In this document: positions 207 to 36,600 of the stretch, piece after piece
Layout: every line of letters starts with the position of its first letter
How positions within the stretch are numbered: position 1 is the stretch's first letter
NCBI RefSeq assembly: GCF_000003815.2
Contig: NC_049990.1
Location: forward strand, 1,563,464-1,627,463
From: Branchiostoma floridae
Lineage: Eukaryota; Chordata; Leptocardii; Amphioxiformes; Branchiostomatidae
DNA: 64,000 nucleotides
Direction: 5' to 3'
The notes under the pieces: model-generated
What the model was told of the DNA's origin: nothing
What the model saw: only the letters and a program-made list of their open reading frames with translations
Database searches by the model: none
Program-made: the position numbers and the translations under genes

Positions 207-345
207 TCTTTCTGTTGTCATGCGATGTTACACCTACCGTTAAAATCAATGTAATTTTCCGTTGCCATGTCATGTTACACCTATCGTTAAAAAAACGATG
301 TAATTTTCTGTTGTCATGCGATGTTACACCTACCGTTAAAGCAAA
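207..345 (-). repeat. Three-copy ~48-bp tandem repeat spanning the LDLa exon donor
   Basis: On the minus strand each copy contains TTTAACGGTAGGTGTAACAT, which is the end of the LDLa exon plus its GT donor. The genuine donor is at 333-332. The middle copy (about 271-297) has lost the GT (AACG followed by ATAGG). The last copy (about 222-247) keeps it. Confidence 0.7.
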
Positions 346-943
346 CGACTTCGTCGAATCCATCAGAACAGTCGGGAACAGAGTCGCAGACAGCGCTCAG
401 TGTGATACAGCTTCCATCGGGGCAGATGGACTCACCCGAAGAACATCCTGCAAGATTTATTTTGTGCATATCAGCAGAATAGACGCTGGATATAGGAGAA
501 ATTTTATATACAACCAGTTATCGCTCACTTCGCTTACGTTTTGATGTCTTTCAGACACTTTCATCAGAGCTTCTAACTGGAGTTTTGCTTCTCGCCGCTT
601 TTAGTAGCCGATGTTTAAATGCTTTCGTGGAATATTTCAAATATTCATGGCACAGTGAAAAAAGAAAAAAAAAAGTTAGAAATGTTTGTTAAACCCCTGA
701 AAGCAATTTTTCAAACATGATATTCCATTATTTCTCTCTTTCTGAATATCAACAATTCGTCATTATATGACTATGATTAAAAATTTTACAAATTACATCG
801 CAGAACCTGTGCGGTGTCTTGGGGTGGACTTTAAAAATCACTTTTTTACCGAAAAAGAATGGCTGGACCGTCGGCACACAGACGGCGATGAGGAGTCCCA
901 CCAGAGTGATGTCCAACCTTCGGTAGCCCTGTCTGCTCTTCAT
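334..943 (-). CDS. 5' part of a secreted LDL-receptor class A domain protein
   Basis: Two exons are visible and the gene runs off the left edge. Exon 1 (943 down to 850) starts MKSRQGYRRLDITL and encodes a typical signal peptide with core VGLLIAVCVP, ending in phase 1 at a GTAAAA donor. Exon 2 (447 down to 334) follows a TTGCAG acceptor and encodes one LDLa module with six cysteines: CSSGESIC, PDGSC, AVC, DSVPDC, then SDGFDEV and a final VC. Exon 2 is 114 nt with phase 1 at both ends, the classical symmetric LDLa exon. LDLa modules bind calcium through acidic residues such as those in DGFDE and mediate ligand binding in secreted or membrane receptors. A GTG 15 nt upstream is open, but the first ATG is at 943. 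What follows exon 2 is unknown. The splice donor of exon 2 lies in a short tandem repeat. Confidence 0.62.
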
Positions 944-1557
944 ATTGGATGGATTCACCGACTACTGTACTAACAAAAAGCAACCTGATATTTCGGCAGT
1001 TTCGATCAGTGGCGATCACGGGTTGCCAAACTGACCACGTACGCCAACACCTCTGAGCTTTTGGCGTTGTGGTTTGCACGTTTGGTTTGTGATCTGCCGG
1101 CCCGGGTCCGATCCTGGGTGTTGTCATAATAGTTTCCACTCGCCCCCCCCCCCCCCTTGTTGTTGCAATTTTGCCCAGATTTTCCTTCAGCTCGAGAAAC
1201 ATGGTCGATGTGTATGTAAATAAAGACGCGCCACAAAACGGTTATACGACCATGCAAAAACTACTAATCAACAATTGAGGAATTTTTATTTGATGGACCA
1301 CTTTTATCAACTACTAGTATCTTGCACGATATGCGTGTGAATCACGTAGAACTGCGCGTGCGTGCGCTTTGGAATGTACAAAATTAAATTCTTTAATCAC
1401 GGAGACTCCAGTCTGCCGAATATTTCAGCTTTTCCGGATTCCAACAAAAAAAGTCATGTAGATTTTCGGTATTTCTTTTCCAATAAAAATACGGTCCAAC
1501 TTGCCACACCTAGATGTCAGCCGATAGTGAATACACATTATGAATTCTGAGGCTATG

Positions 1558-1735
1558 CAGTCAAACCTGTCTATAGTGGCCACTCAATGGACCGGACAAA
1601 TGTGGCCACTATAGACAGGTGGCCTCTGTATAGAGGTGGCAACTTGTAGATAAAATACCCAAGGGACCGACAAAAAGTGGCCACTATGGACAGGTGGCCC
1701 CTCTGTAGAGGTGGCCCCTAATACAGGTTTGACTG
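1558..1735. mobile_element. Short MITE with CAGTCAAACCTGT termini
   Basis: The 178-bp element begins CAGTCAAACCTGT and ends with the inverted ACAGGTTTGACTG. The interior is built of repeated tggccactatagacaggtgg-type segments. The 494-bp element at 22230-22723 has the same ends and a TA on each side, which fits a pogo/Tc1-type non-autonomous family (inference). No open reading frame. Confidence 0.7.
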
Positions 1736-3858: not shown

Positions 3859-6097
3859 ATGGCATCTTCCCGTGTCATCAATATTCCATTCCGGGAACAG
3901 GTAACATCAATATTCCATTCCAGGAACAGGTAACATTAGTGCACACCTGACATTCCAGGAACAGGTAACATTAGTACACACCTGATATTCCAGGAACAGG
4001 TAACATCAGTGCACACCTGACATTCCATTCCAGGAACAGGTAACACTAGTGCACACCTGACATTCCATTCCAGGAACAGGTAACATTAGTGCACACCTGA
4101 TATTCCATTCCAGGTAACATTCGTGCACACCTGACATTCCAGGAACAGGTAACATTTACTAGTGCACACCTGATATTCCATTCCAGGAACAGGTAACATT
4201 AGTGCACACCTGATATTCCAGGAACAGGTAACATTTACTAGTGCACACCTGATATTCCATTCCAGGAACAGTTAACATTAGTGCACACCTGACATTCCAT
4301 TCCAGGAACATAAGTGCACATTTGACATTCCATTCCAGGAACATTAGTGCACACCTGACATTCCATTCCAGAAACAGGTAACATTTAATAGTGTACACCT
4401 GACATTCCTTCCAGAAACAGGTAACAATAGTGCACACCTGACATTCCTTTGCAGAAACAGGTAACAATAGTGAACACCTGATATTCTATTCCAGGAACAG
4501 GTAACATCAGTGCACACCTGACATTCCAGGAACAGGTAACATTAGTGCACACCTGATATTCCATTCCAGGAGCAGTTAACATCAGTGCACACCTGACATT
4601 CCAGGAACAGGTAACGTTAGTGTGCACCTGACATTCCAGGAACAGGTAACATTAGTGTACACCTGACGTTCCAGGAACAGGTAACATTAGTGTACACCTG
4701 GCATTCCAGGAACAGGTAACATCAGTGCACACCTGACATTCCAGGAACAGGTAACATTAGTGCACACCTGATATTCCATTCCAGGAGCAGTTAACATCAG
4801 TGCACACCTGACATTCCAGGAACAGGCAACGTTAGTGCACACCTGACATTCCAGGAGCATGTAACATTAGTGCACACCTGACATTCCAGGAACAGGTAAC
4901 ATTAGTGCACACCTGATATTCCATTCCAGGAGCAGTTAACATCAGTGCACACCTGACATTCCAGGAACAGGTAACATTAGTGCACACCTGATATTCCATT
5001 CCAGGAGCAGTTAACATCAGTGCACACCTGACATTCCAGGAACAGGCAACGTTAGTGCACACCTGACATTCCAGGAGCATGTAACATTAGTGTACACCTG
5101 GCATTCCAGGAACAGGTAACATCAGTGCACACCTGACATTCCAGGAACAGGTAACATTAGTGCACACCTGATATTCCATTCCAGGAGCAGTTAACATCAG
5201 TGCACACCTGACATTCCAGGAACAGGCAACGTTAGTGCACACCTGACATTCCAGGAGCATGTAACATTAGTGCACACCTGACATTCCAGGAACAGGTAAC
5301 ATTAGTGCACACCTGATATTCCATTCCAGGAGCAGTTAACATCAGTGCACACCTGACATTCCAGGAACAGGTAACGTTAGTGTGCACCTGACATACCAGG
5401 AACAGGTAACATTAGTGCACACCTGATATTCCAGGAGCAGGTAACATTAGTGCACACCTGACATTCCAGGAGCAGGTAACATTAGTGCACACCTGATATT
5501 CCAGGAACAGGTAACAATAGTGCACACCTGACATTCCTTTGCAGAAACAGGTAACAATAGTGCACACCTGACATTCCAGGAGCAGGTAACATTAGTGCAC
5601 ACCTGATATTCCAGGAACAGGTAACAATAGTGCACACCTGATATTCCATTCCAGGAACAGGTAACGTTAGTGCACACCTGACATTCCAGGAACAGGTAAC
5701 ATTAGTGCACACCTGATATTCCATTCCAGGAACAGGTAATGTTAGTGCACACCTGACATCACAGGAACAGGCAATATTAGTGCACACCTGACATTCCATT
5801 CCAGGAACAGGTAACATATATAGCCTGCAGATGAATGAAGCATTCACTATGATTCAGTGAGTCAGGATGGATGGATGGATAGATGGATGGAGGGAGGGAG
5901 GGAGGGAGGGATGGGTAAGTGGTCCAGGCAGGGAGAGAGGGGTTGGGGTATGGATGGATGACAGGATGAATGAATGAATGAATGAATGAATGAATGAATG
6001 AAGGAAGGAAGGAATGAATGAAGGAATGAATGAATGAATGATAGATCCTAAGTCCCATCCCCAGCGTCTTGCCTGCTTTATAACTGAACATGAAGAA

Positions 6098-6128
<31 letters not shown>

Positions 6129-9100
6129 AATTGATTGATTGATTGCTGCCCTCCCCAGGAGCGCCGGCTGCTGTCCCAGCTGAACAGGATGCGAGAGCAG
6201 GACCAGCTGTGCGACATGACAGTCCGGGTGGGGACACGCGAGTTCCGCTGTCATCAGGCCGTGCTGGCCGCCAGCAGTGGGCACTTCCTCAGTGTCTTCG
6301 TACAGGTGTGGTGTTCTTGTAATCTCCAAGCAGATCTTGCAGTGGCATAGTATCATAAGCTGGGGAAGGAGTTTAGCCGGCAAAGGAATTATTTGGCCAC
6401 CACGAAGGCATTGACAACTTACTTGTCCTTTACTGGCTGAACTCCTTCCCCTGGCCAGCTTATGATACTTAATCCTAATGCCACTGCAAGATCTACTTGG
6501 AGATTAGTGTTTCTGCCTGTTTGATAATAGTGGTATTTTGAACAAAAAAAATTTTGAAATGCAAACAGATCTGTATTTGCGGCTTGGAGGAGAACAACTC
6601 AAGTTTTAGCTAGCCATAGTGGTTGACCAAACGAAAGGATTGAGCCAGCGGTCACTACAGAGGATGGTACTGACAGGCTAGGCTTTAGCATGTTGAGTTA
6701 CCAGTTTTATATTTGGTTTTAGTTAACTCAGTAGTAACTAAAAACTGTTAGTTACTCTTGTCAGTAGTAACTAAATCTGTGCAAGGAACTTATCTTTTCA
6801 AGAAAGTGATTAAAACCATGATGCAAATTGTCCAGCAGCAAATTGTGAAATAACAGAAAATTTTACTGTTTCAAAAAAAATAATAACAGAGCTGCAGACT
6901 TGAATCTTTTCCTCCTTGCCTTCCAGGGAATGCTGAGCTTCCCCAAGATTCTGGACCTCACCTTCACCTCAGCAGACGTCTTCTCCATCATCTTAGACTT
7001 CATCTACACAGCCAGTCTTAAGTGTCCCGCAGACGTCTTATCTCAGGTTCTGCAGGCAGCCAAGGTTAGTACAGTGTTGTTTTATATTGTCTGTGCAATG
7101 TAGGGCCAACTACTTGTTGCAGCCAGGGCTGAAATGAAGGAGTTTAGAACAGGTGAGGGTAACTTGCAAGGGTCTGGAACTCAGGTGACCTTAATATGAC
7201 AGTAATTGCCCCAGGTGTGGCCATAGGACTGCAGGTTTTGAAGTACTTACACTGAGAAGGACTCCTAATCTTTTCCAATTTTCTTTTCGATTACTTCTTA
7301 GGTTCTGGAGATCCACACACTCGTGGATCACCTGCTGCTGTTCTCTGCTGCACACGACGGAGTGAATGAAACATCCAACAGGGAGTCGGCACAGTCTACC
7401 TGTACAAGCTTACCTGTATTATCAGGTGTGTTCACACCTGTATCAAGTGTGAACACACCTGTGTCAAGTGTCAACACACCTGTGTCAAGTGTCAACACAC
7501 CTGTGTCAAGTGTGAACACATTTGTATCAAATGTGAACACACCTGTGTCAAGTGTGAACACACCTGTTCCACCTGGCCCAGCTAGACAGAATGGTGTGGT
7601 GGTGAAACAAGGTGTGCAGCTGTTTGTTTATTAGTGAATTATCATTACTACATTGTTATAAGTAATGCATTTTATAATTTAGTAATACTAATCTTTCTGG
7701 ATACGAAAGTTGTACATAAAACGCATGAAACGTGCATAGACTGACTGATTGCAGTAGCATATAAGAATGACAATATGGAAAGTTTAATGCAAATTCCTGC
7801 ATGAATCAAGACTAGACCATTACATGATCTGTGCTGAGGAGACATTGAAAAGTTGGAGAATGATACATGTTTTGCGTGTCACTGATTTAAGAATTATTAT
7901 CATTTCTGTAATTCACTTTGTCTTCTAGGTACCTTCACGGTCTGAGAAAATCTGACTTGTTCTCGGAACTGAATGTTCACGACGGCAGCAGGTGCATGTA
8001 AAAAAAAGTCAGTGATCTATTTGTTGTCGGTAAAGTTCATGTTACAGTACACTGAAAATATCAGGAATTACAGTACATGTCTGCCTGTGTTTTCCCTAGA
8101 CCCCCATGACTGGGACTATGAGAATTCCGAGGAGTTCAGACCACAGTCGGAGGTCGCCCGGCTTCAGTATGACCCTATGGCGACCCAGATCGCCGAGCTG
8201 AGGTCAGAGGTCGCGTTCCTCCGACAGCAGCTCAACACCGCCATCGGGGAGGAACCAGTCTCCGTGCACTCTCCTGCAAAACGGCTGAAAAGGGGGAATT
8301 CCTCGCTTCTGTCGGTAAGAAATTGTTTGACTGCCTGCAAGAAGATCACACCATCCTGGAATGTCAACTACATTTAGTGCAAGCAATGTAAATTATATAT
8401 TCAACATCAGCTTGGGAAATCATTGGGCAAAAAAAATCTAAGGCAGTATTTTGGTGACAGTGTCAGACAGTCTGTCACCTTCCTCAATGCAATATGGTTC
8501 TACTTTGCATTGTGTCGCTGCTGCAGTACTTCACACTGCAGCTAGGTGCATGTTGCTGCAGTACTTCACACTGCAGCTAGGTGCATGTTGCTGCAGTACT
8601 TCACACTGCAGCTAGGTGCATGTTGCAGCTCAGATTAGAACCAGTCAGTATACTGTAATTGCAGAAATGTTCGCGGTGGATTAATGTTCGCGGTTTTCAC
8701 GGTGACCACTTCACTGCGAATTTAAAACCACCGCGAACATTTTTCTATTATGATTTTAGATTGCAGTCTATGGTGTTACCGCAAACTAAATCCACCGCGA
8801 AAAGTCCTTTTTCCCTCTACCGCGAAATTAAATCCCCGCAAACTTAAATACATTTACAGTATATTGCCCTGAGGAAGGTGACATACTGTCATCAAAATGC
8901 CTCGAGCTCTGAGACACAACTTGACAGATGAGTGTCTGTTTCTCCAGGGGACTGTGAGGCGACTTCACAACGCAGACACAAACCCCAGGAAGTACAGGGG
9001 AGATTTGGGGTAAGTGTGATGTGCCTTGGTGTGATGTATACATCAGGATTGTAGCCAGCCTGAAACCATTTTCCATCCCCTCGATTTTGAATCCTATCGA

Positions 9101-11407
9101 GCGGCCAAGGTGTGGCGTTTCAAGGGGTCCGGGGGCATGTTCCTCATAAAAATTTAGAAATATAGACCCTCTAAAATGCTATTTCCTGCATTTTGAGGAG
9201 TAAATTTTGCTGGTCGACTAAGCTATTCAACGGCATCTGTTTTTAAATCTTTACATATCGATTTTTGTCTGTCACGGAGGATGGAATCGTCCCCAGCTGC
9301 AAAATTCTGTTAAAGGACGGGCGCTGGCTACAACCCTGGTATACATGTTGGCATTTCAGCCACCTTTACTTTTTGTGATAGTCAGCTGCATGCTGATTTA
9401 AGTGATCATATGAAATTAGTGCTCAAAGAGGTCTAAAACTCACTTCAAATATCTAGACTTTGTTGTATGTAATGTCTTGTTTCGAAAGGACACAATATAC
9501 CAACACCTCCCTATGAAGTAATAGCATCTTCCATTGACCTCTTGACCTGGAATGTCTGTCAGCTGTATTACTATTTATAGCAAAATTGATAGACAAAATA
9601 AGTTTTAACTCTGAACTGAACTTCCTGTCATTCCTGCACTTATGTATGTAAGTTTGTGAGTGGTTGTGATATTTTTCAGATTAAACTCACCTCACAACGA
9701 GGCTGTGACGACCTTCTTAATGAGAGAGGTCGCCGCCGCCTCTGAGCACCATCCACAAACTGTCATCCGAGGTGAGATAACTTAAATTCAATGCATGTAT
9801 ATACTGTAGTATTCATATTACTGGAGTGAAATATCCATATTTCTATCAGCCTGAGGGCTTTCCCAAATCAATATTTCAAACAGTATAAGTTTAAGCTCAC
9901 GTCCTGTTCTTTTTCCAATAAATTTCATTGCAAAAATGCCAGTTTCGTTTTGTTAACGTAAGGTTGTTGATTTGATTGTATGGATGACATCCATGCTCGA
10001 ATAAATTTTTGGTCATTTTCGAAAAGAAGCAAAAAACCTTTTAACAGTCTACTGTAGATCAGAAAATGGATGTCATCAAATGCCAGGAACAATGTATTTG
10101 CTGAAGCTATAGGACCGCAAGTATGATATTCCCAACATATAAGAACCCAGCTCATTAAAAATGGTGAATTAACCCCTCCTCCCAAAAAATTAAGCCCTGC
10201 CCTCGTAGAAGGCTGCAAAGGGGGCCTTGCAGTCATGCTGATGATGACAACGAAGTACATTTTGTTGCCTGTATCCAGCTGCGTGTGTGACGTATTACGA
10301 AACCGTGCGGCGGAGGTTCGTAGATGAACAGCCAGAAAACACAGAGAAGACAAAAAAGCAGAAGAGCGAGAAGCGTCTTCGCTCAAGAAGAAAAAGGGTG
10401 AGTCCATCACTCAAATTCTAAATTCTTTGTGTAAAAACTAAACTGCTATAATTTTCAACAAATGGATAAATTAAATCTGGGTGTTGCAGAATACATAATG
10501 CTAAAGCTAGTGGGAACATAGCTCATATCCATGACCTCCACTCGTGCACAGAAACACAAGGTTGCCTGCCAGCCTGCTAAATACAGAATGCTGTCAAGCA
10601 GTTGATTGATTACCATATAATACATTGGAACCAGTCTCTACTTAGCAATAAGTAATCTGTTAGATGAAGATGTGTATGTCATCTTAAGCAAACATTCAAA
10701 ACCCTTGACTATATAGGGCAACAAGGGAAGATACACACAGGAGATACTGAAAATGCATTTAAGTTTGCGGGGTTCGATTTCGCGTTAGTCGGAAAGTGGA
10801 GTGTTCGTGGTGACTTTACATTTGTGGTAGTGCCATACACTGTAGTCACATAGTGTAAAGGAAAGTTATTCGAAGTTCCAGTAAGATTGCCTTGCAAAAA
10901 CCGCCGACATAAAACCGCAGAGAATATTCGGCATTTACAGTTTACTGTATCTCCTCTTCAGCTGATTGTACATGTGTCTCTCTGGTGTTTCCTTTGAGTT
11001 TCAACTATTTAACTCAGAGAATATTTAAATCTGTGCAGCTGCTGGAGTGCCGAGAAGGAGTCCTGCAGTCAGAGGAGGAGCGATGGCTCTGGACCGGCGT
11101 GACCCCTGACCTCATGTCCGACGAAGACGACAGCGAATCGGACGGCATTCCTGTGTGGCTGGTCAGGCCGCCGGCCTTCCGTAGCGACAAACTGTCGAGC
11201 CTGTGCGGCGTGCTACAATCCAGGCTCGACGCGGACAAGAGGTTCAGGTCATCGCACACTCCGCGGAAAACGGAACCGGGCGTTTTCAGCGAAAGACTTC
11301 CTCCGAAATCGTACGACCCAGAGCGAGCAACCCAGCACATCAGGCCGGAACATGCCCCAAACAAGCTGGGGTTTATTGATGATGTCTTCACGGACCTGGA
11401 TTTATAA
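3859..11407 (+). CDS. BTB/POZ protein with novel C-terminal exons (paralog A)
   Basis: Nine exons: 3859-3900, 6159-6305, 6927-7064, 7302-7611, 8100-8314, 8948-9009, 9680-9771, 10279-10397, 11039-11407. Phases join exactly to 1494 nt (497 aa) starting MASSRVINIPFREQ. Residues ~15-125 form a BTB/POZ dimerisation domain (LCDMTVRVGTREFRCHQAVL, then ILDFIYTASL), typical of nuclear transcription regulators and cullin-3 adaptors. Exon 4 carries a 21-bp coding repeat (TPVSSVN units). Exon 5 holds a short coiled coil (AELRSEVAFLRQQL) and a basic KRLKRG stretch. Exons 6-9 encode a region with TYYETVRRRF, a very basic linker, acidic DEDDSESDG and PVWLVRPPAFRS. From memory this resembles the tail of vertebrate C14orf93-type proteins; I could not check it. 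There is no BEN domain or zinc finger. Poly(A) signal at 11783. Exons 1-5 are duplicated, inverted, in 14175-18549. Confidence 0.85.
3885..5815 (+). repeat. Minisatellite built from the exon 1 / 5' splice site junction
   Basis: About 1.9 kb of 33-45-bp units of the form attccattccaggaacag followed by gtaacattagtgcacacctga. The first unit is the real end of exon 1 (IPFREQ codons) and its GTAAC donor at 3901. I estimate roughly 45-50 units. Many keep CAG|GTAAC; others carry cagttaac, caggcaac or catgtaac variants. The variants alternate in a higher-order pattern across about 4690-5400. One related copy exists downstream of exon 1 of the minus-strand paralog (18459-18484). Confidence 0.9.
5861..6148. 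repeat. Tetranucleotide microsatellites
   Basis: Runs of TGGA, GGGA, TGAA/AGGA and TGAT repeats lie directly before BTB exon 2. The last run (gattgattgattg) is also found, inverted, before exon 2 of the paralog at 18250-18275, so it predates the duplication. Confidence 0.85.
6320..6506. mobile_element. MITE in intron 2 of BTB gene A
   Basis: A 187-bp element begins taatctccaagcagatcttg and ends with the complementary agatctacttggagatta. Central GCCGGC and ctccttcccc segments also pair. It is absent from the paralogous intron of gene B, so it inserted after the duplication or was lost there. Confidence 0.75.
8521..8625. repeat. Three perfect 35-bp tandem units
   Basis: The unit ctgcagtacttcacactgca plus gctaggtgcatgttg is repeated three times without change, indicating a recent expansion. 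It lies within intron 5 of the BTB gene, about 200 bp after the exon, and does not contain a splice site. Confidence 0.85.
8648..8862. mobile_element. MITE, 'ttcgcgg' family
   Basis: The ends tactgtaattgcag and atacatttacagta are inverted. The interior alternates ttcgcggtgga and ccgcgaacatt motifs. A related copy is at 10741-10950. Confidence 0.55.
10741..10950. mobile_element. MITE, second 'ttcgcgg'-type copy
   Basis: It starts aatgcatttaagtttgcggg and ends ggcatttacagtttactgta, with degenerate inverted arms matching the copy at 8648-8862. It sits in intron 8 of the BTB gene. Confidence 0.5.
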
Positions 11408-11788: not shown

Positions 11789-11789
11789 G

Positions 11790-12612
11790 GTATTTTACCC
11801 AATTAGTAATCTGGCTTGCAAGTCAATCTTTCCGAAGCTTTTCAACTTTTTTATCTAGGCTAGGACAGAGCTGGCCGATAACGAAGATGTAAGACAACCC
11901 ATTTTCTCATTTTAAGAATAAAGACGAAAGAATATTTCACTATAAATAAGTAATAAAAACATTAATGAATAGTATATCAAAATTTTTATTCTTAAACAGT
12001 AGTTTGGATAGTATAGTATAGTACAGTACAGTAGTTGGCAGTAAATAATCTGCGAACATCTACTGGTACAATAGATGCTGTACTACTTACGATTTACATC
12101 GTACTATAATTCATAAGACAGTGCTATAAGCAACTTGATTTTCCTCTGTGACCCAAGACTTACATGTATGTACAAATAAGACTCAAGTGGAAAGGTGAAT
12201 TTATGTCTAGATATCGAGAACAAAGGTAACTTTTTGACTTTCCGGGTTCGAACTTCAGGTCGTCTAGTAGCGCTGTACAATCTTACAAATGTATTTTGTT
12301 TTGAGAAACTTTTCAAACTAGACCACCTAGTATCCAGGTAGACACTGGTGACTCGTATTGGTAAATGCTTACGGGCAAAGTAGATGGGACAAGGGAAATG
12401 TGACCAAAACCCTTCACACTTATCGAGAAATGTGGGGCCGACAGGGAGACCCCGGCTGTGCTTGGCCAAAAAGCATAAACTATGATGGGGGAACAATTCA
12501 CAAGGAGCTTGGAGAGAATACCCAAGATCCCTAATAGTACATTGGGATGTTGTTACATTTCAGTTCATTTCAAATTGCCCGGCTGGGCATTGGTTTGTCA
12601 GTGTGGTGCTAG
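11790..12612. other. Intergenic, no gene seen
   Basis: Sequence between the 3' end of BTB gene A and the 81-bp minisatellite. It is AT-rich and I find no conserved exon on either strand. Confidence 0.5.
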
Positions 12613-13665
12613 CATCAGCTGGAGGATTGGTACTCTGCAGATTTCCTCTTTATTCCCCGTACCGCAGCGGTACACTTGTTCCCATGGTGATACCATCAGC
12701 TGCAGGATTGGTACTCTGCAGATTTCCTCTTTATTCCCCGTACCACAGCGGTACACTTGTTCCCATGGTGCTTAAGCATCAGCTGGAGGATTGGTACTCT
12801 GCGGATTTCCTCTTTATTCCCCGTACCGCAGCGGTACACTTGTTCCCATGGTGATAGCATCAGCTGGAGGATTGGTACTCTGCAGATTTCCTCTTTATCC
12901 CCCTCACCGCAGCGGTACACTTGTTCCCATGGTGATAGCATCAGCTGGAGGATTGGTACTCTGCAGATTTCCTCTTTATCCCCCTCACCGCAGCGGTACA
13001 CTTGTTCCCATGGTGATACCATCAGCTGGAGGATTGGTACTCTGCAGATTTCCTCTTTATCCCCCTCACCGCAGCGGTACACTTGTTCCCATGGTGATAC
13101 CATCAGCTGCAGGATTGGTACTCTGCAGATTTCCTCTTTATTCCCCGTACCACAGCGGTACACTTGTTCCCATGGTGCTTAAGCATCAGCTGGAGGATTG
13201 GTACTCTGCGGATTTCCTCTTTATTCCCCGTACCGCAGCGGTACACTTGTTCCCATGGTGATACCATCAGCTGCAGGATTGGTACTCTGCGGATTTCCTC
13301 TTTATTCCCCGTACCGCAGCGGTACACTTGTTCCCATGGTGATAGCATCAGCTGGAGGATTGGTACTCTGCAGATTTCCTCTTTATTCCCCGTACCGCAG
13401 CGGTACACTTGTTCCCATGGTGATAGCATCACCTGGAGGATTGGTACTCTGCAGATTTCCTCTTTATCCCCCTCACCACAGCGGTACACTTGTTCCCATG
13501 GTGATAGCATCAGCTGGAGGATTGGTACTCTGCAGATTTCCTCTTTATTCCCCGTACCGCAGCGGTACACTTGTTTCCATGGTGATAGCATCAGCTGGAG
13601 GATTGGTACTCTGCAGATTTCCTCTTTATCCCCCTCACTGCAGCGGTACACTTGTTCCCGAAAAT
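12613..13665. repeat. 81-bp minisatellite between the BTB paralogs
   Basis: About 13 units of 81 bp (occasionally 83 bp where cttaag replaces the usual joint), each starting catcagctggaggattgg. Most units hold the odd palindrome gtaccgcagcggtac (7-bp arms, one central base) and a ccatgg site. Because 81 is divisible by three, long open frames appear on both strands; I do not regard them as genes. Unit variants (ggaggatt/gcaggatt, tattccccgtacc/tatccccctcacc) are interspersed. Confidence 0.9.
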
Positions 13666-17100: not shown

Positions 17101-18549
17101 GCTAATTAGTAGCCATTGAGAAAAGTCAAGAGTATGGAAAATAGGCTACAGCACCATAGAAAGCTGCAAGTAGGCAATATCCAATCTTGTCCTTTTCTAA
17201 TGGATCCTTCCAGCCGAACGCCATATCAAACAAATAGAACCCTCTATTCTATTTCGAATACTCGGTCAAAAACAACACTTGTGGGATGGGAATGGAGAAC
17301 GCAAAATGCTATGCCTTTTTGCTGAAGACTACATCGGCTGAGTCATAGTTGTTTTGGGAAGGGTAGGCGCTACATAACATTACTTTGTTCCTGGGCAGGA
17401 TGTACATATAAAGCAGTGTACGTAGAAGGGACGGGACTTTGTAGTAGGATCTTATATTTGGCATGTGGTACAAACACCCTCTCCGTGAGTGACAGAGCTG
17501 CTTTGTTCTTAATTTGTTTTTTCTCCTGAGCATGTGTGCACCTGCCATGCATGCAACAAACGGGGTAGAAAACCTGTCACATATATACGTATCCAGCTTT
17601 ACACCTGCATCGACCGCATGTTAGAAACCGGGCAATCTTGCCCACCAAGAAGGGAATATTATGGAGCGCCTCCCGCTTCCGCTTTGACTGAAATTATATC
17701 GCCCTTACCACAAGTATATACTTCCCTTCCTCAACCAACTGTACCCAGTGGATGTAGCCTTCCACAAAGAATGCAGAGCATTTTTCTTTCGCCCGTTCTG
17801 AGAGAATTTTAGGGCCCAAAAAGCTAAACCAAAGTCAGTTAGTATCTTCAGCTTAACCGCGGCGGCGGCCATGTTTTTGCAACTCGCGCCGTTTATGACC
17901 GAGGTTTTGAAATAGAACCCGAGATCGAACAGGGGGCGGGGCTTATGGTGTTCGGCTGGAAGGGTCCATTGATTATGCTATAGCAACATACCAAACTTCA
18001 TATTAATCCAAATTATCAAAACAAATCAAAGTTATGCTGTTAAACCACACACAAATGCTGACAGAAGCAATCTTCATGGAGAGGATAACACACCTGCACG
18101 AAGACACTGAGGAAGTGTCCACTGCTGGCGGCCAGCACGGCCTGATGACAGCGGAACTCGCGTGTCCCCACCCGGACTGTCATGTCGCACAGCTGGTCCT
18201 GCTCTCGCATCCTGTTCAGCTGGGACAGCAGCCGGCGCTCCTGGGGAGGGCAGCAATCAATCAATCAATCAATCAACTATTCAAACAATCAAGCAATATA
18301 TAGGTATCAATCCTGACGCATGGCGGTTGTACTTAAGTGCAGACATCTCTCTTCGAGATGCTCTATATTTTCCGTGTAGGAGCTTACCAGTTGATTGGTT
18401 AAATTTCTTGACTTAATTACTCGAATGCCATCTAAACTTACTGGAATGCTAATTGTCAATGTTACCTGTTCCAGTAATGGAATTGTCAACTGGTGTGTAC
18501 TAATTACCTGTTCCTGGAATGGAATAGTGATGATGTGGGAAGATGCCAT
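14175..18549 (-). CDS. BTB-BEN domain protein, NACC-like (paralog B)
   Basis: Six exons on the minus strand: 18549-18508, 18240-18094, 17010-16873, 16534-15577, 15134-14977, 14519-14175. Total 1788 nt, 595 aa, starting MASSHIITIPFQEQ. Exons 1-3 equal those of paralog A in length (42, 147, 138 nt); exon 2 encodes the same 49 residues. Residues ~15-125 are the BTB/POZ domain. Exon 4 is a long Pro/Val/Thr-rich region of degenerate repeats (NLPVPSGVNT, PAGVR). Exon 5 has a coiled coil (LRSEVTSLRQQI). The last exon encodes a BEN domain at ~498-560 (DLQILVHRANYSGRQLCHNL, then GFGKAVLDQNVLEAI). BTB plus BEN is the NACC1/NACC2 architecture: nuclear transcriptional corepressors that bind DNA through BEN. 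The end is uncertain. Either the exon reads through to the stop at 14175, adding a hydrophobic tail, or it splices at 14285 (AAG|GTATCC) to an exon I cannot identify. Confidence 0.85.
18459..18510 (-). repeat. Two-copy donor repeat after exon 1 of BTB gene B
   Basis: On the minus strand exon 1 ends ccattccaggaacag|gtaat. A second copy, attccattactggaacag|gtaac, follows about 30 bp later (18484-18459). This is the same unit that has expanded to nearly 2 kb in gene A. Confidence 0.75.
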
Positions 18550-22800: not shown

Positions 22801-25800
22801 TAGAGTGTACCATGTGCTGTCGTGGGGGGTTCCCCTGATCCTAGCCTGCCTCCCCTTCATTGGCCACCACTATGGACCGGCCGGAGCCTGGTGGTCAGTT
22901 GTCTGTTTTTTTTTTTTTATCTAGATTTAAATCACTGTCTAACTACTGTTTGTACATTTATTCCTTTGGTCATAATTCAAATTTCATAATTTGTACAGAA
23001 TATTAAGATCATTTCAAGCCAACCATGATTTATTGTACACATTATTCATTATTCTCCATGTTTGTTTGTTTTTCAGTTGGATACCAAACCAGTACACACA
23101 CTGGAGGTTTGCAATGTAAGTTTGTCTCACCATCTTACACACTGTATTCATACTGTATTACAGGTTGGTCTTTGTCATCGTTCTGTTGAGTTCAAGGTAT
23201 GATCCAAGCCAGGCTTATAGCTAGGATTTTAAAATAGGGAGTCCAAACTTATTGGTGAGTCGTGGTAAGTGACTATTGTAGGGGGGTCCGGGGGCATCCC
23301 CTTCCATAGTGCAGAGTTTTTGATGATTTTAAGTTAAAAAAAGTGCACTCTTAGGTATTCCAAGAGGCAAAAATACTGTTCCAGAGGTCACAGTAGAAGA
23401 CTGTGACCACAGATGACCTGGTAGCATCCCTGGTCAATCAGAATTTCATGCTTGTCAGACAATTTTGGGCGTCCAGGGGCATCAAATTTCTTGTTATTCT
23501 AAGAAAAGTGCGTCCAGATGACGCGTTGACGCATGCCTGGCTAAAAGCCTGATCCAAGCCCTGGACCTCTGGCCTTACAATGTACATGCACTAGCTTGGT
23601 ACTGACATACAGTGAATTAAGTAACTGTTACGGTTATGTAGATAACACACCTATTTGTATTTGGGTTATGATACAAATGATACATGATATGAATGATCAT
23701 ATTGTGTAAGGAAATCCTGGCCATCATATAGTATATTGAACTCCCTGTTGTTCCCCCTCCCTACAGATGGTACGGCCCTTTGTTCTGCCTGCTGGGTTTG
23801 ATGGTTGTCGTCTACACCTGCATTACTGTCACACTCAACAGGAAGGTGGGTTTAAGTTACTGTCACACTCAAACATTACTGTCACACTCAAACATTACTG
23901 TCACTCTCAACAGGAAGGTGGGTTATAGTTACTGTCACACTCAAACATTACTGTCATACTGAAACATTACTGTCACTCTCAACAGGATGGTGTGTTTAAG
24001 TTACTGTCACACTCAAACATTACTGTCATACTGAAACATTACTGTCACTCTCAACAGGAAGGTGGGTTTAAGTTACTGTCATACTCCAACATTACTGTCA
24101 TACTGAAACATTACTGTCACTCTCAACAGGAAGGTGGGTTTAAGTTACTGTCACACTCAAACATTACTGTCATACTGAAACATTACTGTCACTCTCAACA
24201 GGAAGGTGGGTTTAAGTTACTGTCACACTAAAACATTACTGTCATACTGAAACATTACTGTCACTCTCAACAGGAAGGTGGGTTTAAGTTACTGTCACAC
24301 TCAAACATTACTGTCATACTGAAACACTACTGTCACTCTCAACAGGAAGGTGGGTTTAAGTTACTGTCACACTCAAACATTACTGTCATACTGAAACATT
24401 ACTGTCACTCTCAACAGGAAGGTGGGTTTAAGTTACTGTCACACTAAAACATTACTGTCATACTGAAACATTACTGTCACTCTCAACAGGAAGGTGGGTT
24501 TAAGTTACTGTCACACTCAAACATTACTGTCATACTGAAACACTACTGTCACTCTCAACAGGAAGGTGGGTTTAAGTTACTGTCATACTCAAACATTACT
24601 GTCACACTCAAACATTACTGTCACTCTCAACAGGAAGGTGGGTTAAACATTAACCCTTGCCATGCCAAGTTACAGTTTAGGAATCTGAAAAAAATAATGC
24701 TAAGTTAGTGAATCCATGAGCAGATTTTTCAAGGCCAATATCAATTAAGTTTGTTGGTTCTCAAATCAAGTGTTTTGTGTTCACTTCACTTCTGCAGGTG
24801 AAAAGATGGGAGGGAACATATGACCCTGATGTGGAGAGGAACAAGGTAAGAATTAAGTTTTTCACTTTCTTTATGTACATAACTCCTCCCCCACTTGCCT
24901 GTTGGGGCAAGTAAGATTTTTTAATGATTAGTAGTAGTAGTCCACTGTCCAGTGATTGAGATTGAGAATATTAGTAAGGAGTCCAGTCTGACCTGTAGAT
25001 TTTGCCCTCCCCAGGAAATGCTGAAGGAGGACATCAAGCCCCTGCGAGCGTACCCTTTCATCTACCTGGCTCTCTCCATCTTCCCTCTCGTACACAGGTA
25101 ACTTCTTAAGTCATTTATGTCTTAGGCTTTGTGGTTTTGTCGCATAATATCATCTTAATAACTTTTCAGGCATCAACAGTTTATTTCCTTGTTTCTCGGA
25201 GGCATTTAAATTTTAAGAGGACAGAATGAAAGCAATGGATTTGATTTGAAAACAATGAACTGGTGGAAAATAACGAGAATCCGACTATCCCCTCTGACTC
25301 AGTTGCTTTGTTCATCTGCTACATTGCACGTCGGCATTATTCTTAATCTATGAACAATAAACTTTTATCACAAAATGGTAGATAGCTATGGCATGGGCAT
25401 ACAAGTCCACTAAAAGCTAAATACCTACATTTATATGTAAACTAAAATCTTTCCGGTTGAAATGTTTTAGTATCGGAAGTGAATTAAGCAAGCGTTGTGT
25501 TTGATGTTTCTTTTTATTTATTTACTTTTTTGTTGTTGTTGCTGCCCCAGGATCCAGAACGCGATCTCCCCAGACACCATGGTGTTTGCTCTGGTGGTTC
25601 TGCATGCGCTCACGTCACCTCTGCAAGGTAGAGGTCAACTTACTGTCACTGATCTGTAGCTAGCAAAAAGCAAAGTCATGCACTTTTGTTTTGTTTAAGA
25701 TGTCATGTTTTCTATCATTGTTCAATGATAAAACTGTCCAACACAACCAAAGTCCACCAAACATTCTAAGTTTAAGAATTTCCAACAATACAATTTTACA

Positions 25801-26335
25801 AGGACTTCTAATTAATGTAGATTAACCTGTTGAATGTGTTTTGTGTGTATACAGGAATGGTGAATGCTATTGTTTACGGACTGGACAGAGAAACCATCGT
25901 ACGGCTCACTCCTACATCCATCAAGGTACGGCTCTTATGTTCATTCTTATTTCCGTGGTTAGCTGCAGCAACAACAACTCATACAGCCTAAATGATATGT
26001 AACATTTCATACTGGTATGTTTATCCTTGCTGCACCTCATCATAAGGATGACAAATGATGATGATGATGACGTTTATCCAGAAGAAAAGAGTAGCATTTA
26101 CCCTGGACATGTAAATTAATTTCTTTTCAACACTTTGTGATAGGGCAAGACACTTACTGACCGTTTCTCTACCCTCCTGTGTTTCCCCTCCCAGCTCGCC
26201 ATCCAGAGCCACTTGAACCAGCCCACCCTCATCAGCGAGTACCCATCAGCCCCTGTGCACTCCCAGGATGCATCAGCTGACCTTTCACCTGTGGTTGACC
26301 CCGAGAGTGACCCCCAGGACCAGGAGGAGAGCTGA
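19872..26335 (+). CDS. GPR157 / cAMP-receptor-like seven-transmembrane receptor
   Basis: Fourteen exons: 19872-19979, 20561-20613, 20863-20917, 21175-21231, 21506-21566, 21991-22078, 22804-22893, 23077-23115, 23767-23845, 24798-24845, 25015-25097, 25551-25627, 25855-25925, 26195-26335. They join in frame to 1050 nt (349 aa). Seven hydrophobic segments are visible: SLSLIGCLFMIGVIWLF, LILYLSIAALLDDIAYLM, WVCCITFNLTLNIIW, VLSWGVPLILACLPFIG, LFCLLGLMVVVYTCITV, YPFIYLALSIFPLV, and VFALVVLHALTSPLQGMV. A cysteine at LCNFQ near TM3 and the extracellular WCWIP motif suggest the usual disulfide. HVLSWGVPL, WCWI and VVLHA match my memory of GPR157 and Dictyostelium cAR-type receptors. The tail is acidic and Ser/Pro-rich. 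The donor of exon 7 is placed at TG|GTCAGT because it restores WCWI. Exon 9 ends in a donor repeat. Confidence 0.88.
20960..21195 (+). repeat. Tandem duplication of the exon 4 acceptor region
   Basis: About 130 bp is present twice. Both copies contain accatatgcaggaagaattg, ttgacattt, a pyrimidine tract with CAG and then ttaatcctgtacctgagtat or ttgatcctgtacctgagtat. The second copy is the used exon 4 (21175). The first (acceptor ending about 21050) has the decoy start CAGTTAATCC and drifts after TATATCATG. Confidence 0.75.
22230..22723. mobile_element. 494-bp MITE with CAGTCAAACCTGT ends, TA-flanked
   Basis: It starts cagtcaaacctgtattagcg and ends agacaggtttgactg, with TA on both sides (22228-22229, 22724-22725). 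The centre is GC-rich (ggccacggccacacg). It lies in intron 6 of the GPCR and shares ends with 1558-1735. The TA duplication and CAGT ends suggest a pogo/Tc1-mariner-mobilised element. Confidence 0.8.
23820..24645 (+). repeat. 72-bp minisatellite built from the exon 9 donor of the GPCR
   Basis: Twelve copies of caggaaggtggg (one is caggatggtgtg), each preceded by attactgtcac-type sequence. The first copy is the genuine exon 9 end (codons for TLNRK) with donor at 23846. The unit is 72 bp (24 codons). Splicing at the second donor (after 23917) would insert exactly 24 in-frame residues ending again in TLNRK. The following units hit a stop in that frame. Confidence 0.9.
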
Positions 26336-28373: not shown

Positions 28374-28463
28374 TTCTGTTGTACTTGGTGGCGAAAAGCT
28401 CCAGTCTATGGCAGTTGTAGGAAGAAGGAATTTGAACTTGAGTGGCCTAAAGCTCTACAGTTC

Positions 28464-30301
28464 TTACAGAGACACAAGGTAAGCCCCGAAGTATGTCCCT
28501 GACTCCTGTGGGTTCACCTTGTCAAAGTTCGTCACATCCACATATAAGACGTCTCCTGCCTTGAGGAGGAAGACTCCGCCCACGTAAGACGTGCGGTACC
28601 AAGAGCCGTCTTGGGAGGAAACCTTCTTGGTGGCGCGTCCAATCAGAAGCCTCGATGCTACGGCCGAGGAGCCGCTTTGCCGTAACACGATATGGGTGAG
28701 GTGGAGGGTCTGCTCATCGGCGCCGCCTTGTGAGGTTTGCCGGAACTGCAGCTGGTTGTAGACGTAGTAGTATCCCGTGAGCGGTACGACTATATTTTGG
28801 CGGGAGGTGACGTCCATGCCGTGCGCCCAGGCCGACGAACCGCCGGGGTCCACTTGCCAGTCGCGAATAGTGGAGATGGAGCCTGGTACCAGAAATGAAT
28901 AAAAAATTAGTTCCACATAGAAGGTTGCAGCTTCCTGCTCATGTAAGTTTGCTTGTGTGAAATAAAACATATTCTACTGTATGTAGGGTACATAATGACC
29001 AGAAAGTTACCTTGCTGCAGTGTATGATTCACCAGAAATAAGTTATTTCATTAAACTGGCCTGATGACATTCTGGTCTATTATACTGCATTTGTATCTTA
29101 CCTTCAGTTTTTCTACAAAAACGTTATCAAACACAATCAGTATAACTGAACTGAGGTAAGTCAAAGTGCCCACCTGCTTGACTAGGCGGCTCCTGCAGTC
29201 CCGTCAGCCCCGCTAGGTGCGCCACAGGTACGTGGAAACTGCTGTTGCTCTGCAGAACGTCCGCCCGTTGCCATTGGAGACAGTCTGGGGGAATAGAACG
29301 TGGTTACCATGGTTACACATCCAACATCAATGGACTGTCAAGAAATAGTCATTATCTTATTGTTAACAGGAATTGGAACATTGATATCTTTTGAATTTGA
29401 TACACAAGGTTTATATTCGACTCTTGTTTCAACGTTGAAAGAAATGAATTAGAGCATTAATATCTTTGAAATTTTACAGACAAGGATTTACATTAGACTC
29501 TTGATTCAATGTTGAATTAATTACATTTACATTCAAGACGAGATCGAGAGCAAATATTTACCTTTGCTGCAGTTCCTTCCCCCATCGCTAGTCTGAAAGG
29601 AAACAAGCAGAAAATTGATTAATCTTTCAAAATATATATTTTTAAATGCTGACATTCGAGGCTATATTTTCTTAGTTTTAAGGTGCTCGTTTGATACGAA
29701 TTCTACTCTCAAGCGTCTTCTTCTTTTCTTACTAGATGTTAGTCATAACTAACAGATGTGTCTGCACTACAAGGCGCCGAAACAAGTGCTAAATCAAAGA
29801 CGGGCCTCTCAATTTTTGTATCATCATAAAGGCGTTTTTATCGGCCATTCTTTTGGCAGGTTTTGTTCTTGTGAATCAGCCAAACGCAGACAAAAAGAAA
29901 ACATGACAAAAACAGCCCGATAAAAACAGGTTATTAAACGTCGGAAACCTAACATCTGCTTAGAGAATAGTGATATATAAGGTAAGGACGTGAAATCTCA
30001 CCTGTGCTGCTGTGACACCTGGCGTCACACCTGTGCCGTTCTCCTGCCCCCCTGCCCCGGCTGTGCGCGCCTGCCACAGCAGCTGTATGGTCACCATGTT
30101 AAACACCGCGATCCCCAGGTTCGCTACGGTCACCACGCACAACACCACATGCCCGGCTCTAACCACCGGGCCGAGCGCCTTCCGTCTGCGGGCCTGCCTC
30201 AACCCCCGCCCGCCGGCCTCTCTCACTCCGCCCGGTGCTGACTTCACGACTACGGCATCCATAGTTTGCTCCGTGCTGAACGATTTGGTAAGACAGACCA
30301 T
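28464..30301 (-). CDS. TNF-superfamily ligand (type II membrane protein)
   Basis: Four exons on the minus strand: 30301-30002, 29592-29562, 29284-29174, 28882-28464. They join in frame to 861 nt (286 aa). An in-frame TAG lies directly before the first ATG. A second Met (MDAVVVKS) is 13 codons in. A basic cytosolic segment (RQARRRK) precedes one membrane span at ~51-77 (VVLCVVTVANLGIAVFNMV), with no signal peptide, so type II topology. N-glycosylation sequons NGT and NSS lie in the stalk. The TNF homology domain runs from HVPVAHLAGLTG (~128) to the C-terminus at the usual ~155-160 residues, with GYYYVYNQLQF, GVFLLKAGDVLYVDV and the terminal TYFGAYLVSL. Such ligands trimerise and signal through TNF receptors. 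I cannot assign a vertebrate ortholog. A short exon encodes only ten residues. Confidence 0.9.
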
Positions 30302-33287: not shown

Positions 33288-33497
33288 TAGTAGCCTCCAT
33301 AGCAGGCTCTCTGGGCCTTTTTCGTCTTTTGGGGCTCATAATACACTTTGCTGGTCTTTTCTTTTTGTACTGGCTAGCTTGTACTGCTGTGGGCCGTCAG
33401 TAGAAGCGACCCAGTACAAAAAGAAAAAACAGCAAAGTGTATTATGAGCAAAAAAAGAAGACTAGAAAGGCCCAGAGAGCCTGCTATGGAGGCTAGG
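33288..33497. mobile_element. MITE, 'tagcctccatagcaggct' type
   Basis: Left arm tagcctccatagcaggctct pairs with right arm agagcctgctatggaggcta. Long inner arms (cataatacactttgctg / cagcaaagtgtattatg) also pair. It lies in the proximal upstream region of the SRCR/EGF gene and separates it from the segment shared with the paralog. Confidence 0.85.
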
Positions 33498-33616
33498 CCC
33501 ACCCCGCTACCTCTGTATCCTACCATAGGTCTTCACGCATACCGAAGTAGCGCACAGATCCAACTCTACCTCCTACGTATACTACAGTCTAACTTAGCTC
33601 TCGACAGTCGGCAAAG

Positions 33617-36600
33617 ATGTGGAAGTTTCTGCTCTTCATCGCAGCTGTGATCATCTGGCCAACCTCGGCACAAGGTAGATATTATTTCACGACCTTGATA
33701 TATCTTCGGCCTAAGCCGTTTTTCAAGACGTTATGGGCGGAGGGGTCAGAGGTCTTTTCTTCTTAATAATAGTACACGCAATAATTTACAATTGAACATT
33801 GTATATGTATACCCACTGGGAGAGATTAATTAAGTATAGTTTACAGATGCATGTACATGATATTTACCTTGTCAACCAATACAAGAATCATATTCTACTG
33901 AGAGAATTCGACTTCTTGTCGCTTCTTTATGATCCTGAATGAAAATGTAAGGGTATGAATTTCATTAGGAATATGAATTTATAATAATAAACATGCATGT
34001 CTAGTTTCCTACAGGCCATCCAGTCTAACGCCTGTGGCTGGGATAAGGATTAACTGTTATTGCCTCTGTCAGTCAACCATTTTGTCTCGGGCCAAGCTCT
34101 CCCTAGCCTCTACCAGGCTCCCCGTTTCGGTGGAAAAATGGCAGACACTGACCAAGTAGACAGATAACACGCTATAGGAGTTAGCCGGCAAGAGGAGTGC
34201 AGTTCGCAACCTACGAAAACTATACTCTGCTTACCCGCCAGACTAACTCCTCTGGCATGTTATCAATTTCGCCATGGCCATTTTCTACTATTTTTCCAGC
34301 GGCCTGAGAAGCCTGATAGAGGCTAAGCTGACTTTAAAGATTGAGCGTATTTTTTTTTCCAAATTTCAGAGGGAAGCGTCCGTCTGGTCGGCGGCAGCGG
34401 CGCCCATGAGGGAAGAGTTGAGGTGTTCCATGACAACCAATGGGGAACCATCTGTGACGACGGCTGGGACATCGCGGACGCGCGCGTGGTCTGCCGTCAG
34501 CTGGGCTATCCGGGCGCGGACGAAGCAAAGGTCTTCTCCTTTTTTGGCGAAGGCACTGGGCGGATCTGGCTGTTCGATGTACGGTGTGTCGGTAACGAGA
34601 CGAGCATTTCCCAGTGCTGGCACCGAGGCTGGGGTTACCACCACTGCAACCACAGGGAGGACTCCGGGGTGGTTTGTACACGTAAGCAGTATTTCAACTC
34701 TATATCAGTATCTTATAGAGCTGGTATTACATATATGGACACATATTATACAATAAGGACAGATATACTAGAAAAGCTATATCTAATGCAATCACAGGGA
34801 GGACTCCGGGGTGGTTTGTACACGTAAGTAGTATTTCTCTATATCAGTATATTATAGAGCTGGTATTATATATAACAAGGACATACATTATGTATAATAA
34901 GGACAGATATACTGGAAAAGCTATATCTAATGCAATCACAGGGAGCTCGAGGACTCCGGGGTGGTTTGTACACGTAAGCAAAGTGCAGTATTTACTTATT
35001 TATCTATTCTGTATCTTATATACTCGTAACAGCTGTGTGTAACATGTTACATGTTTAATCTTTTCCCAGTCGATGACTGTGCCTCCTCCCCCTGTGCACA
35101 CGGCATCTGCACTGATGGTCACATGAGCTACACCTGTAGCTGTGAGAACGGCTGGACAGGAACCAACTGTGACCATAGTTAGTATTTCATTCTTACAGTG
35201 ACGTAAACTTGTAACGTTATCCCATCATTCAAGATAAGATGGCTTCGATACGAAAAAGAACAAATTTTAAGAAAATACACAGCAATAACACAAACACATA
35301 ATATTCACGCCTATTCTCTTTACGTCTAGTGTACTTTGGTGTATTTTATGTCGTACTTTTCGTTCCCGAAAGCTGCCCGGCCGGGCCCCGGTTTGGAAAT
35401 GTGACGTATGCCTTCCGGGGACTCTTCAAGATACTCCCCCTAGGGACTAGTAAACTAATTAGGATGATACTCATGTTAGATATTGTTAGGAAATGACCAA
35501 CACTTTCTCGCTCAATCTACGTATGAGACTCTAAAATCTCTTTTACATTTTCCAGACATCGATGAGTGCTTGTCCTCCCCATGCATTCACGGCACCTGTA
35601 TTGACGAAGTAGCGACCTACACCTGTAGCTGTGAGCTCGGCTGGACAGGACACGACTGTGATCAAGGTCAGTATTTGATAGCTCTTCCTTAGACTTAGAT
35701 CATCCCGTGTCTGGTGACACATTGGGCTGCTAGCAGTCTCCAATCAGTGCGATAAAATAGAGAGCAATAGGGAGCACTACTGAATGAAACAACTTCACTT
35801 TTATATTGGTAATTTGATGGCTCGGTGACAGGAAATTTCCATGTACATTTATTGGAGTCCAAAAGAAGACGTCTTTCTTTCGTCATTGTTTTCCAGCTAA
35901 CGTAACGAGCTGGTGTGTTACGCCGAACGGCGGTTATACCGGCTATATAGATACAGATACAGATACAGAAGCTGGTGTGTTACGCCGAGCGGCGGTTATA
36001 CCGGCTATGTAGATACAGATACAGACAGATACAGACTATATATACATACAGAAAGGGAGCGAAAACAATTGCTGTATAACATCGCATAACACCCACGTAT
36101 TTATTTCAGTTGAAGACTGCTCGACCTCCCCATGCGCACACGGTATCTGTACTGATGGAGTGCCGAGTTTCACCTGTAGCTGTGAGAACGGCTGGACAGG
36201 ACTCAAGTGTGACCAAGGTTGGTATTTTCTTTTAAACTACGCTTATAATAGATGGATGTCAACGGGTGAGCATGTTTTTTTTCTGCTAGCGACGTGAATC
36301 ATGGGTAATATGTCAAAGGTGATGGCCCATCAGAAGTCAACAGTCTCGTCTCGACCATTGTCAAGATTTGCATGACAATGTTCGGAACATAATGGCGCTG
36401 GCAAAATGGCTGAACTTTTACATTCGAATATTCATGGGGCCTTAAACTTTGACATATTACCCAGAATTCCTGTCAAATGACAAATAGAAACAGCTCTAGT
36501 TATTGGCAAAATGACATTATTGAATTATATTTCTCTTGTTTTAAAATCCAGACATTGACGAGTGCGCGAGCAACCCTTGCTGGTTGGGAGGGACCTGTCT

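What the first reader, a model, noticed from the sequence alone, without database searches (positions are those of the whole stretch)
207..34981. Tandem repeats built on exon 3' ends and their 5' splice sites, in five genes
At the LDLa exon (207-345), exon 1 of BTB gene A (3885-5815) and of paralog B (18459-18510), exon 9 of the GPCR (23820-24645) and the SRCR exon (34651-34981), the repeat unit contains the last exon bases plus the GT donor and extends into the intron. Units, sequences and lengths (about 48, 38, 72 and 144 bp) are unrelated, so these are separate events in one window. The first unit in every case is the genuine exon end. Rogers-type models propose that tandem duplication of an AGGT-containing segment can create introns; here similar duplications occur next to existing introns, sometimes up to ~50 copies. 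It may be a general feature of this genome: repair or slippage targeted to donors, or selection for redundant donors.
Basis: partly seen in the sequence, partly recalled or inferred. Interest (0 to 1): 0.88.

Follow-up and report, generated by a model that had tools for sequence, protein, structure and literature searches.

The report
Amphioxus "mirage" repeats spanning splice sites
In a lancelet (amphioxus) genome, several genes carry short tandem repeats that copy the end of an exon together with its splice signal into the neighbouring intron; this is a real but already described peculiarity called "mirages", and a small sample of the genome gives no sign that the repeats are aimed at splice sites.

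Summary
Five tandem arrays begin within roughly the last 10-40 bases of an exon, contain its 5' splice site and run into the intron. Two of the gene models are complete open frames; the receptor aligns without gaps to a Branchiostoma lanceolatum protein. The two BTB genes are paralogues, so about five independent events. The host is amphioxus, where this is published as "mirages", with the Rogers-type intron-gain discussion. I add a test of targeting. In 243 kb of other sequence 3 of 49 arrays straddle a splice site (1 donor, 2 acceptors), against 4.05 expected if arrays fall at random and those covering two or more sites are lost. None of 60 LDLa exon donors is repeated. In the window, donors lie in arrays as often as placement predicts, though counted by array straddling is high, 6 of 9 against 1.9. 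Donor bases in the 50-copy array are not better conserved than the rest. Best reading: ordinary minisatellites that captured a splice site and are tolerated.

The parts
209..348 (-). tandem array, 49-bp unit x 2.9, spanning the donor of an LDLa exon (exon 447-334, donor after base 334)
   Evidence: LDLa domain by Pfam E 1e-8
3859..3900 (+). exon 1 of BTB gene A (start codon to donor GAACAG|GTAACA)
   Evidence: 9-exon, 497-aa open frame; BTB and DUF4616 domains
3876..5815 (+). donor-spanning array in BTB gene A: 29-bp unit x2, then about 50 units of 35-40 bp
18459..18549 (-). exon 1 of BTB gene B (18549-18508) and its donor-spanning array, two units and a fragment
   Evidence: homologous to gene A over 130 aligned columns, 72 %
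   Evidence: single place in the genome
23767..23845 (+). exon 9 of the cyclic-AMP-receptor-like GPCR gene
   Evidence: 14-exon, 349-aa frame, gapless 94 % alignment to a B. lanceolatum protein
23821..24645 (+). donor-spanning array, 12 anchors 72 bp apart
34370..34681 (+). SRCR exon, donor GTACAC|GTAAGC
   Evidence: Pfam SRCR E 2.6e-33
34645..34985 (+). donor-spanning array of the SRCR exon, three copies of the boundary
   Evidence: single place in the genome

Best explanation
These are 'mirage' minisatellites of a lancelet: tandem repeats seeded by a short local duplication that happened to include an exon-intron (or intron-exon) boundary, then lengthened and homogenised like any minisatellite by slippage or unequal exchange. 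They persist because splicing uses the exon-proximal site (first donor, last acceptor), so every further copy is removed with the intron. Shown: the anatomy, intact gene models, both orientations, single genomic place for the units that could be searched, no local peak at splice sites in a small sample. Inferred: the birth event, the copying mechanism and the site actually used in RNA.
For: Five donor-spanning and one acceptor-spanning arrays. Receptor protein built on the first donor and last acceptor aligns gaplessly over 349 aa to B. lanceolatum, 94 %. Published mirages in amphioxus with the same anatomy, in both orientations. Stretches holding an array occur at one place in the genome in 3 of 3 answered searches (LDLa, receptor acceptor, SRCR; that search skips simple repeats and very common words). 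Elsewhere: 3 of 49 arrays straddle a site (1 donor, 2 acceptors) against 4.05 (at most one site allowed) or 13.2 (free) expected, 117 predicted exons; 0 of 60 LDLa donors; array coverage 1 of 106 at predicted donors, 2-4 of 89-102 at 50-400 bp into the intron. Donor GT not preferentially kept: 86/90 % against 95 %, 34 of 49 units keep AGGTAA.
Against: By array count the window has more straddling arrays than random placement gives (6 of 9 against 1.9, P 0.0035; 4 of 8, P 0.057 with program-detected arrays only), donors exceed acceptors 5 to 1 there, and its donor rate exceeds that elsewhere (Fisher P 0.0003). The comparison sample is small, its 117 exons are ab initio predictions from a model trained on this window, and no RNA was seen.
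Confidence: 0.85

Rival explanations
1. Duplication is targeted to 5' splice sites, for example by breaks or R-loops at donors, so donors are hot spots of minisatellite birth.
For: In the window 5 of 9 non-coding arrays straddle a donor, 1.14 expected under the conditional null (P 0.002; 3 of 8 and P 0.058 by program-detected arrays only); donor-minus-acceptor difference P 0.023 with the hand-added arrays, 0.20 without.
Against: Outside the window 1 donor and 2 acceptors straddled in 117 predicted exons and 0 donors in 60 LDLa exons, where intronic control points give 0-4 of 60. Window and sample pooled: 6 donors against 3 acceptors, binomial P 0.51. The window was chosen for the pattern.
Confidence: 0.1
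2. The extra donors are kept by selection as a splicing reserve or as regulated alternative sites.
For: Many copies keep a donor as strong as the genuine one (32 of 39 GTAA-type sites in the BTB A array have the same score, 7.2). In BTB B both inner donors (42 and 66 bases on) and in the receptor the second donor (72 bases on) would extend the exon in frame without a stop.
Against: Donor bases are not better conserved than the rest of the unit; one of the two further LDLa copies is broken; 52 of 55 inner donors tested would shift the frame or bring in a stop (0 of 39 usable in BTB A, 0 of 2 SRCR, 0 of 1 LDLa, 1 of 11 receptor, 2 of 2 BTB B). The B. lanceolatum receptor protein has no insertion.
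Confidence: 0.04
3. The arrays are assembly artefacts or the exon models are wrong.
For: Tandem arrays are often mis-sized in assemblies; a published mirage was misassembled in the draft genome.
Against: Complete open frames for two genes, Pfam domains in each of the gene models concerned, gapless orthologue alignment, and independent published cases.
Confidence: 0.02

Closest known systems
Amphioxus 'mirage' minisatellites (Adh3; globins BflGb6 and BflGb9; troponin C; PGBD5)
   Same: Tandem minisatellite-like copies of an exon-intron boundary, genuine boundary in the end unit, both donor and acceptor versions, unit 10-160 bp, splicing reported undisturbed.
   Different: New genes; about 50 units at one donor; one gene with both a donor and an acceptor mirage; a pair of paralogues with 2 and about 50 units.
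Rogers-type intron gain by tandem duplication of an AGGT-containing segment (ATP2A1; fission yeast genes; potato RdRp)
   Same: Tandem duplication of a segment that carries AG|GT.
   Different: Here the intron existed and the extra copies lie inside it; no new intron lies between copies in the present gene models.
Partial exon copies with splice sites in introns of amphioxus VCBP3
   Same: Intronic copies of adjacent coding exons with canonical splice sites in amphioxus (passage, 'data not shown').
   Different: Not described there as a tandem minisatellite across a boundary.

Membership tests
Amphioxus mirage minisatellites | tandem repeat unit that contains an exon-intron boundary | tested here: met
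Amphioxus mirage minisatellites | genuine boundary is the exon-proximal unit and the protein is intact | tested here: met
   gapless orthologue alignment for the receptor; full open frame for BTB A; for LDLa, SRCR and BTB B only domain and phase agreement
Amphioxus mirage minisatellites | occurs in a cephalochordate | tested here: met
   best hit B. lanceolatum, 94 % over the whole protein, next 64 % hemichordate; 513.4 Mb with 19 large contigs. Species B. floridae is recalled from genome size and chromosome number, not tested
Amphioxus mirage minisatellites | mature RNA spliced normally | not testable with these tools
   no RNA data
Amphioxus mirage minisatellites | length polymorphism between haplotypes, somatic instability | not testable with these tools
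   one haplotype only; paralogues differ, 2 against about 50 units
Rogers-type intron gain | new intron lies between two copies of an exonic duplicate | tested here: not met
   in the receptor, BTB A, BTB B and SRCR models the extra donor copies lie inside one intron and its acceptor lies outside the array. For LDLa the next exon was not found in the window

The most novel reading that the evidence does not exclude
Boundary-spanning minisatellites are not a handful of curiosities but affect of the order of 1 % of splice sites in amphioxus, which would mean very many loci, with local clusters such as this window where straddling is well above chance; such clusters would be a standing population of cryptic exon ends in which intron gain or sliding could be caught in progress.
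Probability: 0.3. Interest if true: 0.55.

Novelty: new member of a known kind. Interest (0 to 1): 0.35.

Why it matters
It shows that mirages, known from a few amphioxus genes, also turn up in randomly drawn genome sequence and at both kinds of splice site. It replaces the idea of donor-targeted duplication with a simple testable null: minisatellites fall anywhere, and those that copy a splice site survive because the spliceosome takes the exon-proximal one. An array with some 35 donors as strong as the genuine one is a natural test of how the 5'-most donor is chosen.

Tried and rejected
Rejected: donor enrichment measured on donors, because the window is unusually rich in arrays: 17.8 % of its bases against 7.4 % of 200 kb of random stretches, period 10 or more. 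A 24-mer self-copy test in the window gave 3 of 32 donors, 0 of 30 acceptors, 308 of 1500 random intron points, 307 of 1500 exon points and 217 of 1470 points outside; it misses true cases (BTB A scores 19 of 24, the acceptor array has indels), so it was not used alone.

Changed on checking: a first count (106 exons) had 2 of 49 arrays straddling, against 3.65 expected; it missed an acceptor mirage in L019, probably because its acceptor scored about at the cut-off. I repeated the whole count with looser cut-offs: 122 predicted, 5 dropped (2 in L019 and 2 in L024 lying mostly in arrays, and the L020 one in a coding repeat), 117 kept, 3 of 49. still rests on the first list, in which 6 of 112 predictions more than half in arrays were dropped, L008 among them, and the single donor in an array is, by position, the false L020 one.

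False leads: L020 'donor' at 2585 lies in a coding repeat; exons in L004 and L005 that look EGF-like matched their neighbour exons, not a mirage; the L043 acceptor copy (19 of 24) is too weak on inspection; weak straddling candidates in L005, L009 and L022 (two) did not look like exons on inspection and are not counted. A guess that gene B ends in a BEN domain was not borne out by Pfam.

Papers: PMC3087553, PMC3902484, PMC2632668, PMC2206037 and PMC4974935 were seen as passages, plus one section of PMC3902484; the rest only in listings. The founding Adh3 paper (PMC117041) is not held; what I say of it comes from PMC3087553. No genome-wide survey of mirages was seen in searches; most subscription papers are not in that library. 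Genome-wide searches for the receptor exon-9 array and the BTB A array did not complete.
Full report
What is there. Tandem Repeats Finder lists arrays at three of the five places (209-348, 3876-5798, 23821-24644); the SRCR and BTB B arrays are not listed but are plain by eye and by alignment. I rebuilt the genes. The receptor gene has 14 exons with GT-AG introns and a 349-residue frame. It belongs to the slime-mould cyclic-AMP-receptor family by Pfam (E 2.6e-22). Its best hit in the protein collection is cyclic AMP receptor-like protein A of Branchiostoma lanceolatum, 94 % identical, without a gap over 349 residues. Both splice junctions that touch repeats (exon 3 to 4, exon 9 to 10) are therefore right at protein level. 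BTB gene A has nine exons and a 497-residue frame with BTB and DUF4616 domains. Gene B, on the other strand, has four exons matching the first four of A. The SRCR gene has a signal-like first exon, one SRCR exon and four EGF-type exons; its later part was not resolved into one frame. The LDLa exon stands alone near the window's edge.

Anatomy. In the receptor the unit is 72 bp: 12 anchors at exactly 72-bp spacing, 25 exon bases repeated with the donor; 11 of 12 copies keep GGTGGGT. In BTB A a 29-bp unit occurs about twice and then about 50 units of 35-40 bp follow. Of 49 units compared, 34 keep AGGTAA, 7 have AGTTAA and 4 AGGCAA. The genuine exon reads CGGGAACAG where most units read CAGGAACAG or CAGGAGCAG, and gene B's exon also reads CAG: the array may preserve an older state of the exon (inference). 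Genes A and B: exon 1 is identical at 37 of 42 bases, exon 2 at 145 of 147, exon 3 at 131 of 138, and the exon 1 region aligns into the intron (72 % over 130 columns). The array start thus probably predates the duplication, after which one copy has 2 units and the other about 50. The SRCR copies agree at 134 of 143 aligned bases (units 1 and 2). The sixth array, in receptor intron 3, agrees at 113 of 124 aligned bases and repeats the acceptor and about 24 exon bases.

Would inner donors work? Of 55 inner donors tested, 3 would lengthen the exon in frame without a stop: both of BTB B (42 and 66 bases) and the second of the receptor (72 bases); 0 of 39 in BTB A, 0 of 2 in SRCR, 0 of 1 in LDLa, 1 of 11 in the receptor. 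So for most copies use of an inner donor would be harmful, and for three it cannot be excluded from sequence.

Which organism. The window is a 64-kb piece of a 22.97-Mb contig in a 513.4-Mb assembly of 431 contigs, 19 of them 17-35 Mb long. With the protein hit this is Branchiostoma; that it is B. floridae is my recall of genome size and chromosome number.

Is it more than chance? The window is repeat-rich: 17.8 % of bases in arrays, against 7.4 % in 20 random 10-kb stretches, period 10 or more. With 32 donors and 30 acceptors of the rebuilt genes, random placement of the window's arrays in 1-37000 puts 4.6-4.9 donors inside arrays; 3 (program only) or 5 (with the two hand-added arrays) are observed. 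By array the picture differs: 5 arrays contain a donor against 3.2-3.3 expected (P 0.15-0.17), and 6 contain exactly one splice site against 1.7-2.0 (P 0.002-0.006). If placements that cover two or more sites are disallowed, as selection would do, and the two arrays inside coding exons are left out, 6 of 9 against 1.9 (P 0.0035), or 4 of 8 against 1.6 (P 0.057) with program-detected arrays alone. The window was picked for this feature, so these P values overstate the surprise.

Outside the window. I took 20 random 10-kb stretches and five stretches next to the window, 243 kb in all. A small exon finder (codon usage and splice matrices trained on the window's genes) gave, in its final form, 117 exons. 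Three mirages appeared, all in the random stretches. In L008 (minus strand) an exon ending CCCTCAGGG|GTGAGT is followed by a second copy of its end and donor 139 bp on and the start of a third. In L013 (minus strand) an exon reading [27 protein letters not shown], which I recall as a GUF1/LepA GTPase, is preceded by further copies of its acceptor and first bases every 37 bp. In L019 an exon from 2966, ankyrin-like in my reading (recalled), is preceded by three copies, 90-94 % identical over 116-123 bases, of its acceptor and first exon bases, in a 198-bp-unit array. Of 49 arrays with period 15 or more (two coding arrays left out), these 3 straddle a site; the null is 4.05 when arrays may cover at most one site (P of as many or more 0.79) and 13.2 when placed freely (P of as few 0.007). 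On the first exon list, array coverage rises with distance: 1 of 106 at the donor, 2-4 of 89-102 from 50 to 400 bp, 5 of 83 at 600 bp; acceptors 1 of 106, then 1-4 of 90-105. As a homology-based check I searched the genome for LDLa domains (150 scored places), chose 73 places, at most three per 100 kb, from a hand-copied part of the list, and obtained 60. None of 60 donors has a near copy (19 or more of 24 bases) within 420 bp; one acceptor has a weak one that I do not count; control points give 0-4 of 60 in introns and 1 of 60 in exons. Two of the 60 loci (L068, L079) look like copies of each other. Together, 1 of 177 donors (95 % interval 0.01-3.1 %) and 2 of 177 acceptors (0.14-4.0 %) outside the window, against 5 of 32 donors in it (Fisher P 0.0003).

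Mechanism. Any tandem duplication across a boundary leaves two equivalent boundaries; the protein stays whole only if the exon-proximal one is used, so the rule that the first unit is genuine is expected. Longer growth then costs little. This accounts for donors and acceptors alike, for unrelated units, for locus-specific sequence (one place only in 3 of 3 answered genome searches) and for the absence of extra conservation at donor bases. What starts the duplication is unknown; published authors also call the mechanism unclear.

Known or new. [quoted passage not shown] The PGBD5 paper (PMC3902484, passage and one section) adds 60- and 108-bp cases and names Adh and troponin C. So the finding is a set of new members of a known kind. 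The test against random placement and the rough rate were not seen in print in searches.

Limits. Small sample; ab initio exons; the exon model was trained on the same window; no RNA, no second haplotype, no second lancelet genome. The excess within this window is not explained beyond its having been selected.

Noticed in passing
20941-21198: Acceptor-spanning tandem duplicate (133 bp) in the same receptor gene that carries the exon 9 donor array; one gene with both kinds.
   Followed up: yes
7422-7567 and 15621-16368 (-): 21-bp in-frame coding minisatellite in exon 4 of both BTB genes, much expanded in gene B (exon 958 against 310 bp).
   Followed up: partly
3859-11407: BTB domain and DUF4616 in one predicted 497-aa protein (Pfam E 1e-20 and 7.9e-30); a combination whose novelty I did not check.
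   Followed up: no
19872-26335: Animal member of the slime-mould cyclic-AMP-receptor GPCR family; listed homologues include invertebrates, fishes and amphibians.
   Followed up: partly
12604-13659: 81-bp unit repeated 13 times at 94 % between the two BTB genes, open in all three plus-strand frames over long stretches; nature unknown.
   Followed up: no
28464-28973 (-): TNF-family ligand domain (Pfam E 1.8e-22).
   Followed up: no
46239-50279 (-): Single 1346-aa open frame: leucine-rich repeats followed by a tail built of in-frame repeats (periods 81-174 bp).
   Followed up: no
53694-54389 (-), 59423-61962 (-): Open frames that look like retroelement reverse transcriptases, the second with a GIY-YIG-like end as in Penelope-type elements; recalled, Pfam gave no match at 0.001.
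   Followed up: no
L008 2387-2692 (-), L013 8436-8565 (-), L019 1445-3062 (+): One donor and two acceptor mirages met in random stretches.
   Followed up: yes
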